Positions 7,565 to 15,821 of a DNA stretch of 35,438 bases are shown here, one piece after another. The DNA is taken from assembly GCA_016929445.1 (NCBI GenBank), contig JAFGIU010000091.1:1-35438 (forward strand). Reading direction: 5' to 3'. The translations under genes were made by a program, and so were the position numbers. This stretch comes from Candidatus Omnitrophota bacterium (GTDB lineage Bacteria; Omnitrophota; Gorgyraeia; JAFGIU01). The first letter of the stretch is position 1. Every line of letters begins with the position of its first letter. A model generated the notes under the pieces. That model saw nothing but the letters and a program-made list of their open reading frames with translations, was not told where the DNA came from and did no database searches.

Positions 7565-8149
7565 TTAAGGTGTGGCCCCTGCTTCGGGTTTCACGGGAAC
7601 GGATTCCTGCACGGCAGCCTCAGCCTGAGCGGCCACCGGGGCTGCGGCGTCCTGAGTCTCAAACACAGCTGTCTCAAGAGCCTGCTGAGCTGCTGTTGCC
7701 TGGGCCTCCGCCGCCTCTGTGCTTTCCACCACAAGCTGCTGCACTTCCCCGGCTGCGGAATCCACCGTCTCCATGGTTGCCGCGGCTGCAGCAGTGGCCT
7801 CTTCTGTTGTTTCGGCAAGCTCAGCCAGGGTCTTGTCCACACTCGCATCTGTAGCTGCGGCCTCAGGCACTGCCGGAATCGCGGTTGCAGACGCCTGAAC
7901 TGCGCGTTCCATCAAAGACTTGGAGCCGCGCGCACTCAAGAAGGTCAAACCCGCACTCGTAAGAATAAAGGTAACAGCAAAGCCGGTCGTGAGCTTCATA
8001 AGCAGATCTGCGGTCTGTGTGCCAAAAAACTGCTGGCCGGCTCCGCCTCCGAACACATCCGCCACCCCGCCGCGCCCTGCCTGAAACAAAATCATGGTGA
8101 TGAGCATAATGCAGGCCACTACATGAAAGACTATTAAGACAATTGCCAT
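7565..8149 (-). CDS. secG: Preprotein translocase subunit SecG with long Ala/Glu-rich tail
   Basis: Inner-membrane subunit of SecYEG that assists preprotein translocation. Two helices (about 4-22 and 54-72) flank the conserved loop QAGRGGVADVFGGGAGQQFFG (24-43), which is diagnostic for SecG. The ATG has GGGAG about six bases upstream. Most SecG proteins end soon after the second helix; here roughly 120 further residues (74-194) are rich in alanine, glutamate, threonine and glutamine with no recognisable domain, probably disordered and exposed. The gene lies 13 bases downstream of tpiA and 3 bases upstream of the solute-binding protein, placing it at the end of the glycolytic cluster. Confidence 0.9.
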   Translation of the reverse strand: MAIVLIVFHVVACIMLITMILFQAGRGGVADVFGGGAGQQFFGTQTADLLMKLTTGFAVTFILTSAGLTFLSARGSKSLMERAVQASATAIPAVPEAAATDASVDKTLAELAETTEEATAAAAATMETVDSAAGEVQQLVVESTEAAEAQATAAQQALETAVFETQDAAAPVAAQAEAAVQESVPVKPEAGATP

Positions 8150-11338: not shown

Positions 11339-12265
11339 TTAAGAAAAGGTAAGGCCCACAGCCAGGGAATGGGCAGCCAGCCAGGCCTCTGCAGGCATGG
11401 GCCGCTTGCCTTCAGGCTGGAGCTCCAGGATCCGCAGGCTCGCTTTTCCTGCGGCCACAACCAGGCCCTGTTTGGGATCTGCAGCCAGAACTGTGCCCGG
11501 GGCCCCGGATTCCGCGCAGAGCTCAGAGCGCAACAGCACCAGCCGGCGGCCATCCAACACGCTATAGGCCCTGGGCCAGGGCTGATAGGCCCGGATCCGG
11601 CGCTCGATGAGCCCCGCAGGTTCAGCCCAATTGACCTGGCCCTCGGCCTTGGAGAGCTTGGGCGCGTAGGTGGCCTGCGCCTCGTCCTGTTCCACAGCCC
11701 GGCCCAAGAAGGAGTCCAGATCGCGCAGCACCCTAAACAAGCTGCCGACGCCCAAGCGCGCCAAGCGCTCCCCCAGACTCGCAGCTGTGTCCGTGGGCAA
11801 AACCTGATCTTCTTCTTGGAGCAAAACCGGTCCTGCATCCACTCTGGATGTAACCAGGGCCAGGCTCACCCCGGTGAGCGAATCGCCCTCCAAAATTGTG
11901 CGTTGAAGCGGGGAGGCGCCGCGATGCCGGGGCAGAAGCGAAGGGTGCACATTGAGATTTTCGACGGACGCGACTTCAAGCACTTCCTTGGAGAGAATCC
12001 CGCCAAAGGCGGCCACCACGGCCAGGCCGGGTTTGAGGCTCTGATATTCGGCCAGAAAAAAACCGGAACGCACGTCCTCGGGTTTGAGGACACGCACCCC
12101 GTGGGCTTCGGCCACGCTTGCCACGGCAGAAGCCTTGAGTTGTTGTCCGCGTCCCTGCGAACTATCCGGACGGGTAACCACTGCCGCAGGCCGGTGCTCG
12201 GAATCAATCAAGGCCTCGAGAATCGGCACGGCAAAGGCAGATGTTCCAAAAAATACAATATTCAT
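11339..12265 (-). CDS. fmt: Methionyl-tRNA formyltransferase
   Basis: Formylates the initiator methionyl-tRNA using 10-formyl-tetrahydrofolate (308 residues, normal). The N-terminal Rossmann start is NIVFFGTSAFAVP. The catalytic set N105, H107 (NVHPSLLPRHRGASP) and D143 (RVDAGPVL) matches the canonical Asn-His-Asp triad. The C-terminal OB-fold tRNA-binding domain is recognisable from RIRAYQPWPRAYS onward. The ATG at 12263-12265 faces a divergent TPR gene across 38 bases; no clear ribosome site is visible upstream. A palindromic repeat follows the stop. The gene is separated from the downstream gap cluster by 162 bases. Confidence 0.95.
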   Translation of the reverse strand: MNIVFFGTSAFAVPILEALIDSEHRPAAVVTRPDSSQGRGQQLKASAVASVAEAHGVRVLKPEDVRSGFFLAEYQSLKPGLAVVAAFGGILSKEVLEVASVENLNVHPSLLPRHRGASPLQRTILEGDSLTGVSLALVTSRVDAGPVLLQEEDQVLPTDTAASLGERLARLGVGSLFRVLRDLDSFLGRAVEQDEAQATYAPKLSKAEGQVNWAEPAGLIERRIRAYQPWPRAYSVLDGRRLVLLRSELCAESGAPGTVLAADPKQGLVVAAGKASLRILELQPEGKRPMPAEAWLAAHSLAVGLTFS

Positions 12266-13215: not shown

Positions 13216-15117
13216 TTAGGGCTCCGTAAGGATAGAGAGGTGGACGCCGGTTTTTTTGACTTGGGCCCAGGCAGCGGCAATGGCGTTTTGGAGGGTAAAT
13301 ACCCGGCGGCCGCGCAGCACAAGCTCCCAGCGATAGGCATCACGCACCTTGGCGGGCCGGCCCGGGTGCGGCTCCCCTAAGCCCCCAGCCAGCTCCTCAC
13401 GCGCGCTCAAATTTTCGTACAAAGCCTCAGCCACGCTCTCAACCCGTTTTTCCACTTTGCCCCGCAACTGCATGGAAACCTGATACCCCGCAGGCGGCAG
13501 CCCCAAAGCCCGTCTTGTTTCCAGTTCCTCGCGGTAATAGCCCAAAAAATCCCATGCCTGCACATGCTTGAGCAAGGGTTGATCCGGGGAATAGGTCTGG
13601 ATCAGGACCTTGGAATTCCCGTTCACAGCCAACTGCGCGCGCACCACATCGAGCATATGAAAGCTGCGCTCCGCAGCCCGGAAATCCGGCCAGTTCAGCC
13701 AAGATTCCAAAGAGAGCACCGCAGCCAAGGTCAACCGCGGGGAATGAATTTCCCCCAGCAAAAGCTGCGTGCCGAGCAGCACATCGATTTCTCCCCTTTC
13801 AAATCGCGAGCGCAGCTCCTCCATCGCGCCTTTGCGGCGGAGCACATCCACATCCAATCGCGCCACGCGAAACTCCGGAAGCCAACGCCGCAACTCGCTC
13901 TCCACCTTTTCCGTGCCAAGCCCTCTAAAGCGCACATAGTCCGAATCACATTCCGGACAGCGTTCCGGCACACCCTCCTGATGGGCGCAATGGTGACAGA
14001 TCAGTCTCTTTTCGCTGTAGTGATAGGTCAGAAGCACGGCACATCGCGGGCACTCCATCCGGTGCCCGCACTTCTGGCAACCCGCATGACCCGCAAAACC
14101 CCTGCGATTGACCAACAGTAAGGACTGTTCTTGCCGCTGGACGGCATTTTCCAAAGCGGCCACCAGAGCCGGAGACAAACGCCCCACCCCGGCCCGCGCG
14201 CCGCGCATGTCCACAATAGAAACTGCGGGTAATTCGCGGGGCTTTTCAACCAATTCGTATTGCTTGCGCCGGGCGCGATAGTAGCTCTCGACAGAAACCG
14301 AACCCGCACCCAAGATAAGCGGCACGCTTTCAATACGCGCCCGCGCCAAAGCCACAGTGCGGGCGTGAAAGCGCGGCCCCTCTTCCCCCTGATAATTCCC
14401 GTTCGCCTCATCCTCGATCACAATCAACCCGAGCCCGCAGATAGGCGCGAGCACTGCCGAACGCAGACCCATAACCAGCGAACAGGGGCGCGTCCTCAAA
14501 CGCAGCCAAGTCTCCCGGCGCTGGGGCAAACTCATCCCCCCGTGCAACACTTCACAGGTTTCGAGAAGCTCAGGCGCCTCTGATGTTAGGAATGCGCGCA
14601 TGCGCTCCAGAAGTTTGACTTCAGGCAAGAGCAGAAGCGCGGCACGCCCCGCCTTTGCTGTGGCGCGCATGGCCCGGACATAATGCTGCCAACGCTCAGC
14701 GCGCTGGTCTATTTGCAGGAGTCTGGGTTTGGGGGCAAGTTCCGCGGATTGGACGGGGTTGGGCGGCTCCGGCCACGCCAAAGAACGCAGCGTGCGCAGA
14801 GTCTGAGGCAAACCGGTTTCAATGGACTCCCCCCACCCGCACCCGCAGTGCGCCGCCAGCCAACGCGTCAATCGCAAATAGCTGTGCGGGAGCAAAGGCT
14901 GCGGCTCAAGCAGCGCATCGAAGGGTTTGACCGGATAAGAAGGCTTGGAAACAACCCGGCCCACCACATAACCGAGCACGCGGCGATTGTGCAACCGCAC
15001 GCGCACGCGGCATCCCACTTGCACCTGATCGCACAAAGCCTCGGGAACCGAATACGTGAAGACACGGCGGGAGGGAATGCCCACTGCCACACTAACCCAC
15101 TGCACAGCCGCACTCAC
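13216..15117 (-). CDS. priA: Primosomal protein N' (PriA) with degenerate helicase motifs
   Basis: PriA normally recognises stalled forks and reloads the replisome as a 3'-5' helicase; length here is 633. The N-terminal fork-binding domain (1-110) and a full two-site zinc module are present: C347, C350, C356, C359, C374, C377, C387, C390. The helicase motifs are lost. Where Walker A (GxTGSGKT) should stand, about 137-146, the protein reads IDQRAERWQH. The DEEH box reads DEAN (236-239). GSATPS reads GAGSVS (270-275). The QVAGRAGR motif reads DVVRAQLA (490-497). Flanking blocks such as GPRFHARTVALARA remain alignable, so this is PriA and not another helicase. The start is GTG at 15115-15117, overlapping the uracil-DNA glycosylase stop (GTGA). 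It probably acts as a structural, non-ATPase restart factor. Confidence 0.9.
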   Translation of the reverse strand: MSAAVQWVSVAVGIPSRRVFTYSVPEALCDQVQVGCRVRVRLHNRRVLGYVVGRVVSKPSYPVKPFDALLEPQPLLPHSYLRLTRWLAAHCGCGWGESIETGLPQTLRTLRSLAWPEPPNPVQSAELAPKPRLLQIDQRAERWQHYVRAMRATAKAGRAALLLLPEVKLLERMRAFLTSEAPELLETCEVLHGGMSLPQRRETWLRLRTRPCSLVMGLRSAVLAPICGLGLIVIEDEANGNYQGEEGPRFHARTVALARARIESVPLILGAGSVSVESYYRARRKQYELVEKPRELPAVSIVDMRGARAGVGRLSPALVAALENAVQRQEQSLLLVNRRGFAGHAGCQKCGHRMECPRCAVLLTYHYSEKRLICHHCAHQEGVPERCPECDSDYVRFRGLGTEKVESELRRWLPEFRVARLDVDVLRRKGAMEELRSRFERGEIDVLLGTQLLLGEIHSPRLTLAAVLSLESWLNWPDFRAAERSFHMLDVVRAQLAVNGNSKVLIQTYSPDQPLLKHVQAWDFLGYYREELETRRALGLPPAGYQVSMQLRGKVEKRVESVAEALYENLSAREELAGGLGEPHPGRPAKVRDAYRWELVLRGRRVFTLQNAIAAAWAQVKKTGVHLSILTEP

Positions 15118-15821
15118 TTCTGCGGAACAGACAGCCCAAGCTCTGCCATCACGGACTTGAGGTCCTCCCAGGCCTCGCGCTTTTGCTCGGGGTTGCGCAG
15201 GAGATAGGCCGGATGAAAGCTGACTCGCGCGCGCCGGCCGCGCACTTCAAACCAACGGCCCCGCGTTTGGCGTAAAGGCAAATCCTCTTTAAGCACACCG
15301 GTGGTCGCGGTACGCCCAAGCAAACAAAGAACCTCCGGCTGGATCAGATCAATCTGAGACCACAGGTAGGGAAGACAGGAAATAATCTCCTCCGGCGCAG
15401 GAACCCGGTTGTTGGGAGGCCGGCACTTGACCACATTGGCAATATAGACCTGCTCCCGGGAAAGCCCCATGGCCGCAATCATGCGGTCCAGGAGTTGCCC
15501 GGCCCGCCCCACAAAAGGCCGGCCTGTGCGATCCTCCTCCGCACCCGGGCCCTCGCCGATAAACATCAGTTTGGCGCGGGGACTGCCCTCTCCGGGCACG
15601 GCATGAGTGCGGCCCTTGTAGAGTGCGCAACGCTGACAGGAAAGCACTTCCTGATTCAAGACCTCCAGGTTGGGATACCCCTTTGCAACCCCATTCGGGG
15701 ATTCGCTCCCTTTTGTTTGAACCGGGACAACAATGTCCGTGATCCCTGTGCCGCATTCCGCGTCTAAAAGACGAATCGCCATATCGAAGATATCTTCTTT
15801 TCTCTGCGTGGATGCTGCCAT
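15114..15821 (-). CDS. Uracil-DNA glycosylase, family 4 (iron-sulfur type)
   Basis: Removes uracil from DNA to start base-excision repair (235 residues). The family 4 signature GEGPGAEEDRTGRPFVGRAG is at 89-108, and the second motif HPAYLL at 203-208. Four cysteines for the [4Fe-4S] cluster are C62, C65, C133 and C149, with the expected C-x2-C ... C-x15-C spacing. The first 50 residues are variable and without recognised function. The ATG at 15819-15821 has a GGGAG some eleven bases upstream. The stop overlaps the priA GTG by four bases, coupling a repair glycosylase to a replication-restart protein. Upstream lies a palindromic repeat. Confidence 0.92.
   Translation of the reverse strand: MAASTQRKEDIFDMAIRLLDAECGTGITDIVVPVQTKGSESPNGVAKGYPNLEVLNQEVLSCQRCALYKGRTHAVPGEGSPRAKLMFIGEGPGAEEDRTGRPFVGRAGQLLDRMIAAMGLSREQVYIANVVKCRPPNNRVPAPEEIISCLPYLWSQIDLIQPEVLCLLGRTATTGVLKEDLPLRQTRGRWFEVRGRRARVSFHPAYLLRNPEQKREAWEDLKSVMAELGLSVPQK

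What the first reader, a model, noticed from the sequence alone, without database searches (positions are those of the whole stretch)
13216..15117. PriA that has lost every helicase motif but kept its zinc module
Walker A (137-146 reads IDQRAERWQH), DEEH (reads DEAN), GSATPS (reads GAGSVS) and the QVAGRAGR motif (reads DVVRAQLA) are all replaced, while flanking blocks and all eight zinc cysteines are intact. The 633-residue frame is uninterrupted, so this is not recent decay. A PriA pseudohelicase is known in Deinococcus; a case here would be a separate example and would mean replication restart without PriA ATPase. The gene is coupled (GTGA) to a family 4 uracil-DNA glycosylase, hinting at a repair-linked role.
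Basis: partly seen in the sequence, partly recalled or inferred. Interest (0 to 1): 0.65.

Follow-up and report, generated by a model that had tools for sequence, protein, structure and literature searches.

The report
Replication-restart protein PriA without its motor
This bacterium's only known copy of PriA, the protein that restarts stalled DNA copying, has lost every part of its ATP-driven motor but kept its DNA-binding shell; the same loss has happened several times in its bacterial class, which suggests that about half of that class restarts replication with a motorless PriA.

Summary
The 633-aa GTG frame (13216-15117, minus) is the priA ortholog and the only priA found in a 97%-complete genome. 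The 3' DNA-binding domain, all eight zinc cysteines and the C-terminal domain are kept. The AlphaFold model (pLDDT 92) matches fork-bound E. coli PriA at TM 0.90.

It is not a lone case. In the window's class, 28 family-level lineages have a motifless priA, 24 an intact one and one is intermediate; the motifs are lost or kept together. Ribosomal-protein trees reject a single origin (p-AU 0.004). A family in another class lost the motifs too, with the zinc module. One motifless pair has dN/dS about 0.14. In the dead site the P-loop lysine is Arg or Lys in 31/39 and the threonine a bulky hydrophobic residue in 29/39.

Best reading: a PriA pseudohelicase that still recognises forks and reloads the replisome, as proposed for D. 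radiodurans PriA. A repair role inferred from the uracil-glycosylase neighbour is not supported, because intact priA genes have the same neighbour.

The parts
13216..15117 (-). priA, 633 aa, GTG start; PriA pseudohelicase
14806..15093 (-). 3' DNA-binding domain (residues 9-104), kept
   Evidence: Pfam PF17764, E 5e-20; identity ratio motifless/intact 0.85
14725..14805 (-). Linker (residues 105-131) where the winged-helix domain of E. coli PriA would lie; absent in the whole class
   Evidence: low-confidence stretch in the model
14683..14712 (-). Dead motif I / P-loop, IDQRAERWQH (136-145); Walker A K-T aligned with R142-W143
   Evidence: helix 139-155 in the model
14404..14415 (-). Dead motif II, EDEA (235-238) in place of DEEH; E237 kept
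14293..14310 (-). Dead motif III, GAGSVS (270-275) in place of GSATPS
13948..14079 (-). Zinc module, eight cysteines (347-390), kept
13738..13755 (-). Dead motif V, GEIHSP (455-460) in place of KGxDFP
13624..13647 (-). Dead motif VI, VVRAQLAV (491-498) in place of QVAGRAGR
13231..13488 (-). PriA C-terminal domain (544-629), kept
   Evidence: Pfam PF18074, E 7e-7
15114..15821 (-). Family 4 uracil-DNA glycosylase, overlapping the priA start (GTGA); ancestral neighbour, not specific to motifless priA
   Evidence: TIGR00758 220 bits; synteny
11339..12265 (-). fmt (methionyl-tRNA formyltransferase), conserved downstream neighbour of priA
   Evidence: Pfam; synteny

Best explanation
This is the cell's PriA, turned into a pseudohelicase. 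It still recognises branched DNA through the 3'-end pocket, the zinc module and the C-terminal domain, and it serves as an ATP-independent platform for reloading DnaB (perhaps with DciA) at stalled or repaired forks. The helicase lobes survive as a folded scaffold with the nucleotide site rebuilt (P-loop glycines replaced by helix; Walker A K-T aligned with R-W). Strand separation, where needed, is done by another helicase (RecG or UvrD/PcrA, both present), or only forks with single-stranded lagging template are used. Shown here: motif loss, ortholog identity, no second priA found, kept domains, purifying selection in one motifless genus, repeated origin. Inferred: no ATPase, kept fork binding, kept role in restart, the helper helicases.
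For: All five motifs lost, three PriA domains kept. Only priA found in the genome. Same position next to fmt as intact priA. dN/dS 0.123/0.867 in the motifless G024/G054 pair; helicase lobes lose half their conservation while 3'BD, zinc module and CTD keep 77-85%. Model pLDDT 92, best PDB match fork-bound E. coli PriA 8fak, TM 0.90. Independent losses. RecG, UvrD/PcrA and DciA present in the genome. Precedent: D. radiodurans PriA has no ATPase or unwinding but binds forks and DnaB, and ATPase-dead E. coli PriA still assembles primosomes (PMC4504706).
Against: No biochemistry. No dedicated replacement helicase or loader was found to track motif loss. In a few lineages (f60, G141, G264) the zinc module is lost as well, so part of the fork-binding shell is itself dispensable there. 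The DnaB-binding surface is not known. The dN/dS value comes from another genus, not the window's own.
Confidence: 0.75

Rival explanations
1. The protein has left replication restart and serves another role, for example as a structural factor that binds branched DNA or SSB; restart is done by other means.
For: Loss of the motor is sometimes followed by loss of the zinc module (f60, G141, G264) or by extreme divergence (G004, G038), as if constraint were falling. Two relatives, G015 and G050, have no PriA hit beyond SF2 helicase cross-matches.
Against: 3'BD, zinc module and CTD keep most of their conservation, the fold matches fork-bound PriA, the gene stays in place, and the D. radiodurans precedent keeps fork and DnaB binding (PMC4504706).
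Confidence: 0.17
2. The protein still binds or hydrolyses ATP by a changed site and remains a working helicase.
For: A basic residue sits at the Walker A lysine position in 31 of 39 motifless PriAs, and E237 of motif II is invariant.
Against: P-loop glycines are gone and the region is helical in the model; the Walker A threonine is replaced by Trp; motifs III, V and VI are also lost. K-to-R alone abolishes ATPase in E. coli PriA (PMC4504706).
Confidence: 0.04
3. The gene is a decaying pseudogene or the result of assembly error.
For: None beyond the missing motifs.
Against: 633-codon open frame, all domain ends and cysteines intact, the same state in whole families of independently assembled genomes, dN/dS 0.14 in a motifless pair.
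Confidence: 0.01
4. An intact second priA exists in the unassembled 3% of the genome and does the restart work.
For: The genome is a 137-contig assembly, 96.98% complete.
Against: None of the motifless genomes among the 59 relatives shows a second, intact priA, including one-contig G054 and six-contig G024.
Confidence: 0.02

Closest known systems
Deinococcus radiodurans PriA pseudohelicase (Deinococcus-Thermus PriA; PMC4504706)
   Same: PriA ortholog with degenerate motifs I and II; Arg at the Walker A lysine position; shown there to lack ATPase and unwinding while binding ssDNA, forks and DnaB.
   Different: According to the paper, Deinococcus-Thermus has poor matches in motifs I and II, with K changed to R. 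Here all five motifs scored are gone, the P-loop is rebuilt as helix, the losses are repeated within one class, and they occur in a different lineage. No biochemistry here.
E. coli PriA and its helicase-dead K230R form (priA300; PMC4504706, PMC4752480)
   Same: Same domain order apart from the winged helix; model matches fork-bound E. coli PriA (8fak, TM 0.90). K230R shows that primosome assembly does not need the ATPase.
   Different: E. coli PriA is an active helicase with a winged-helix domain; the window protein has neither the motifs nor that domain. E. coli uses PriB, DnaT and DnaC; these were not searched for here.
Mycobacterial PriA (annotated in public databases as lacking helicase motifs; from memory)
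   Same: PriA described as lacking helicase motifs.
   Different: Recalled, not checked here. The only two actinobacterial PriAs fetched (L031, L032) are motif-intact.

Membership tests
PriA family (replication restart protein, by descent) | Profile match over the curated cut-off (TIGR00595) | tested here: met
   405 bits, cut-off 230
PriA family (replication restart protein, by descent) | 3' DNA-binding domain, eight-cysteine zinc module, PriA C-terminal domain | tested here: met
   Pfam over cut-offs; eight cysteines
PriA family (replication restart protein, by descent) | Overall fold of PriA | tested here: met
   AlphaFold pLDDT 92.2; 8fak TM 0.90
PriA family (replication restart protein, by descent) | Winged-helix domain between 3'BD and lobe 1 | tested here: not met
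   Linker too short; also missing in motif-intact relatives of the class, so not linked to motor loss
PriA as an active SF2 helicase | Helicase motifs I, II, III, V and VI | tested here: not met
   All five lost
PriA as an active SF2 helicase | DNA-stimulated ATPase and unwinding | not testable with these tools
   Needs purified protein
PriA pseudohelicase (D. radiodurans type) | PriA ortholog with loss of the Walker A and B residues | tested here: met
PriA pseudohelicase (D. radiodurans type) | Sole priA in the genome, under purifying selection | tested here: inconclusive
   Only one found in a 97%-complete genome; dN/dS 0.14 measured in another motifless genus, no close relative of the window's genome held
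PriA pseudohelicase (D. radiodurans type) | No ATPase or unwinding activity | not testable with these tools
   Predicted from motif loss; not measured
PriA pseudohelicase (D. radiodurans type) | Binds ssDNA, fork DNA and its cognate DnaB | not testable with these tools
   Kept domains make DNA binding likely; not measured

The most novel reading that the evidence does not exclude
In a whole bacterial class, and once more in another class of the phylum, PriA has been turned several times into an ATP-independent fork-recognition and helicase-loading scaffold, with a similar rebuilding of the dead nucleotide site each time. The PriA motor would then be dispensable in nature, either because RecG or another helicase takes over or because PriA unwinding is harmful in these cells.
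Probability: 0.6. Interest if true: 0.7.

Novelty: new variant of a known kind. Interest (0 to 1): 0.6.

Why it matters
PriA's motor is described as well conserved among bacteria, with Deinococcus-Thermus the notable exception (PMC4504706). Here is a second, separate and much larger case, in which intact and motorless PriA alternate across related families with several independent losses. That makes an open question testable by comparison: what is the PriA motor for, and what lets a cell do without it? The recurring replacement residues in the dead ATP site and the kept fork-binding shell point to what the restart function really needs.

Tried and rejected
UDG-coupled repair role: rejected as specific evidence, because UDG4-priA adjacency also occurs with intact priA and in other classes. 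Pseudogene or sequencing error: rejected. Second intact priA: searched with the protein and with TIGR00595, not found. Compensating helicase: RecG is found in nearly all genomes and UvrD-type helicases in 58 of 59, both regardless of PriA state; RecQ in 9 of 59 and not in the window's genome; DciA in 52 of 59; no clear association. Single origin of all losses: rejected on ribosomal proteins (p-AU 0.004). The PriA gene tree groups most motifless sequences on long, weakly supported branches and was not used to count losses. The exact place of the window's genome is unresolved: G000 with the large motifless group alone is not rejected (p-AU 0.52), nor is G000+G009+G020 (0.27), though the large group with all three is (0.02). 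The genome-contig scan gave only two actinobacterial PriAs, so no tool could name the phylum; a 16S rRNA search found nothing in the assembly. A Shine-Dalgarno-like pattern scan was uninformative.

Full report
WHAT IS THERE. The minus-strand frame 13216-15117 (GTG start, 633 aa) is open and complete and overlaps the stop of a family 4 uracil-DNA glycosylase by GTGA. Pfam finds the PriA 3' DNA-binding domain, the PriA zinc ribbon and the PriA C-terminal domain, all over cut-off, and no helicase domain. NCBIfam's priA model matches at 405 bits against a cut-off of 230. Aligned with E. coli-type PriA and with relatives, motif I reads IDQRAERWQH (136-145), motif II EDEA (235-238), motif III GAGSVS (270-275), motif V GEIHSP in place of KGxDFP (455-460) and motif VI VVRAQLAV (491-498). 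All eight zinc cysteines are present.

ONLY COPY. The window is a whole contig (C91) of a 137-contig, 96.98% complete assembly. A search with the protein gives one match. The priA profile finds it plus weaker SF2 relatives, of which the two listed are RecG (C38) and an Mfd core (C18). A second intact priA in the missing 3% cannot be excluded formally. None of the motifless relatives shows one, including a one-contig and a six-contig assembly (G054, G024).

NOT ALONE. The nearest held genomes are only of the same class. Of 59 genomes (window included), 56 have a match with the window protein. In the full or nearly full PriAs among them the five motifs behave as one unit: the intact ones have all five (G025 with small variations), the motifless ones have none, and G022 is intermediate (its GPEGSGKM keeps part of the P-loop). 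The cysteines are kept in both groups. The priA profile score splits accordingly: intact 585-686 bits, G022 at 544, motifless 444 and below (contig-edge fragments set aside). Over 384 genomes of the class, 332 have a match at E 1e-20; 150 matches of about 545 bits or more are listed, and about 170 genomes fall in families with low-scoring priA (the second number is my own count from the table after setting aside nine short or low pieces in otherwise intact families). Apart from such pieces, state is uniform within families: 28 motifless, 24 intact, 1 intermediate. At least one sequence was read in every motifless family and in 20 of the 24 intact ones; four intact families rest on the score alone.

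OTHER CLASSES. In nine other-class families inspected (f57-f59, f61-f64, f66, f68) PriA is motif-intact, but family f60 (G387, G390, G396) has lost the motifs and also the zinc module. G384 (f57) is the mirror case: motifs intact, but only four of the eight cysteines.

HOW OFTEN. On a tree of concatenated ribosomal proteins (58 genomes, 3238 columns) the motifless state needs 7 changes, 6 of them forced by well-supported branches. The careful search did not finish, so this is the quick tree. On a 32-genome subset, holding all motifless genomes as one clade costs 137 log-likelihood units (p-AU 0.004). Adding f13 to the large motifless group is rejected (p-AU 0.036), and so is adding G000+G009+G020 together (0.021). 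G000 alone with the large group is not rejected (0.52), nor is a G000+G009+G020 clade (0.27). A cautious count is about five losses: the large group; f4+f13; at least one among G000/G009/G020; G022; and f60 in another class. Whether the window's own loss is private is not settled.

ORTHOLOGY AND THE UDG NEIGHBOUR. In most loci priA has fmt downstream, and UDG4 or the MGDG-synthase-like gene directly upstream, whether the motor is intact or not. So the motifless genes are priA itself, changed in place. UDG4 next to priA looks ancestral: it occurs with intact priA in this class and in other classes, and it is missing from the locus in the large motifless group. It therefore says nothing special about the pseudohelicase.

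SELECTION AND STRUCTURE. In the one same-genus motifless pair (G024/G054) dN is 0.123 and dS 0.867 (NG86), ratio 0.14; an intact pair gives 0.049/0.681. Mean pairwise identity among motifless PriAs relative to intact ones is 0.85 in the 3'BD, 0.80 in the zinc module and 0.77 in the CTD, but 0.53 and 0.50 in the two helicase lobes. So the motor is released from constraint while the DNA-binding parts mostly are not. The AlphaFold model built from window and relatives has pLDDT 92.2 and pTM 0.91. Its best PDB match is fork-bound E. coli PriA (8fak, TM 0.90), then the winged-helix deletion form 6dcr. In the model, helix 139-155 begins where the P-loop glycines should be. Over 39 motifless PriAs the residue at the Walker A lysine is Arg or Lys in 31 (Arg in 22), and the one at the Walker A threonine is W/F/Y/I/L in 29 (Trp in 15); the 44 intact ones have K in 44 and T or S in 44. 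The pattern recurs in separate lineages, including f60 (R-I). I noticed it by eye in the alignment and then counted it on the same sequences, so it is descriptive. That it fills the empty pocket is inference.

MECHANISM. D. radiodurans PriA has no ATPase or unwinding but binds ssDNA, forks and DnaB, and ATPase-deficient E. coli PriA still assembles primosomes (PMC4504706 and work cited there). In E. coli a helicase-dead PriA (priA300) suppresses recG recombination defects, which was read as PriA unwinding D-loops wrongly when RecG is missing (PMC4752480). The best explanation is that the window protein binds forks and reloads DnaB without ATP. The own genome has RecG (C38), a UvrD/PcrA-type helicase (C42, 675 aa) and DciA (C1) and no RecQ hit. 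None of these tracks motif loss, so a dedicated replacement helicase is not identified.

TAXON. No tool names the genome. Small genomes (about 1-2.5 Mb) and one very large class with other classes beside it fit Omnitrophota (PMC10066038 gives 0.86-3.20 Mb for that phylum), but this is inference. A search for papers holding both Omnitrophota and PriA found none.

VERDICT. Real, and well supported as a PriA pseudohelicase by sequence, structure prediction and evolution; biochemically unproven. The kind is known from Deinococcus. The extent, the repeated loss and the rebuilt nucleotide site are new as far as the literature searched here shows.

Noticed in passing
L184:638-2605 (G000:C18) and frames of about 640 aa in most relatives: Mfd occurs as a short form (656 aa in the window's genome: UvrB-interaction, RID and helicase parts; no match to the start or the last part of the mfd model). 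It gives no hit in G003, G012, G022 and G045, all with motifless or intermediate PriA, while other motifless genomes keep it.
   Followed up: partly
L154, L156, L157 (family f60, another class); L159 (G141), L160 (G264): PriAs that have lost the zinc cysteines as well as the helicase motifs, down to 531-599 aa.
   Followed up: partly
L173 (G384, family f57): Mirror case: helicase motifs intact, but only four of the eight zinc cysteines remain, so one of the two zinc sites appears lost.
   Followed up: partly
G026, G030 (motifless PriA) and G007 (intact PriA): No full-length RecG hit in these three genomes although RecG is found in nearly all others; suggestive given that helicase-dead PriA suppresses recG defects in E. 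coli, but three cases are too few.
   Followed up: no
G015, G050; G004, G038 (L056, L176): G015 and G050 show no PriA beyond SF2 cross-matches at 93-97% completeness; family f5 has an extremely diverged PriA of 586-588 aa that keeps the eight cysteines.
   Followed up: partly
window 14407-14409 (residue E237): The third residue of the DEEH motif, Glu, is kept in all 84 PriAs compared, motifless ones included, which suggests a structural role apart from ATP hydrolysis.
   Followed up: no
window 7565-8149 (-): SecG-like protein of 194 aa, in which only residues 4-70 match SecG; the long C-terminal tail is unexplained.
   Followed up: no
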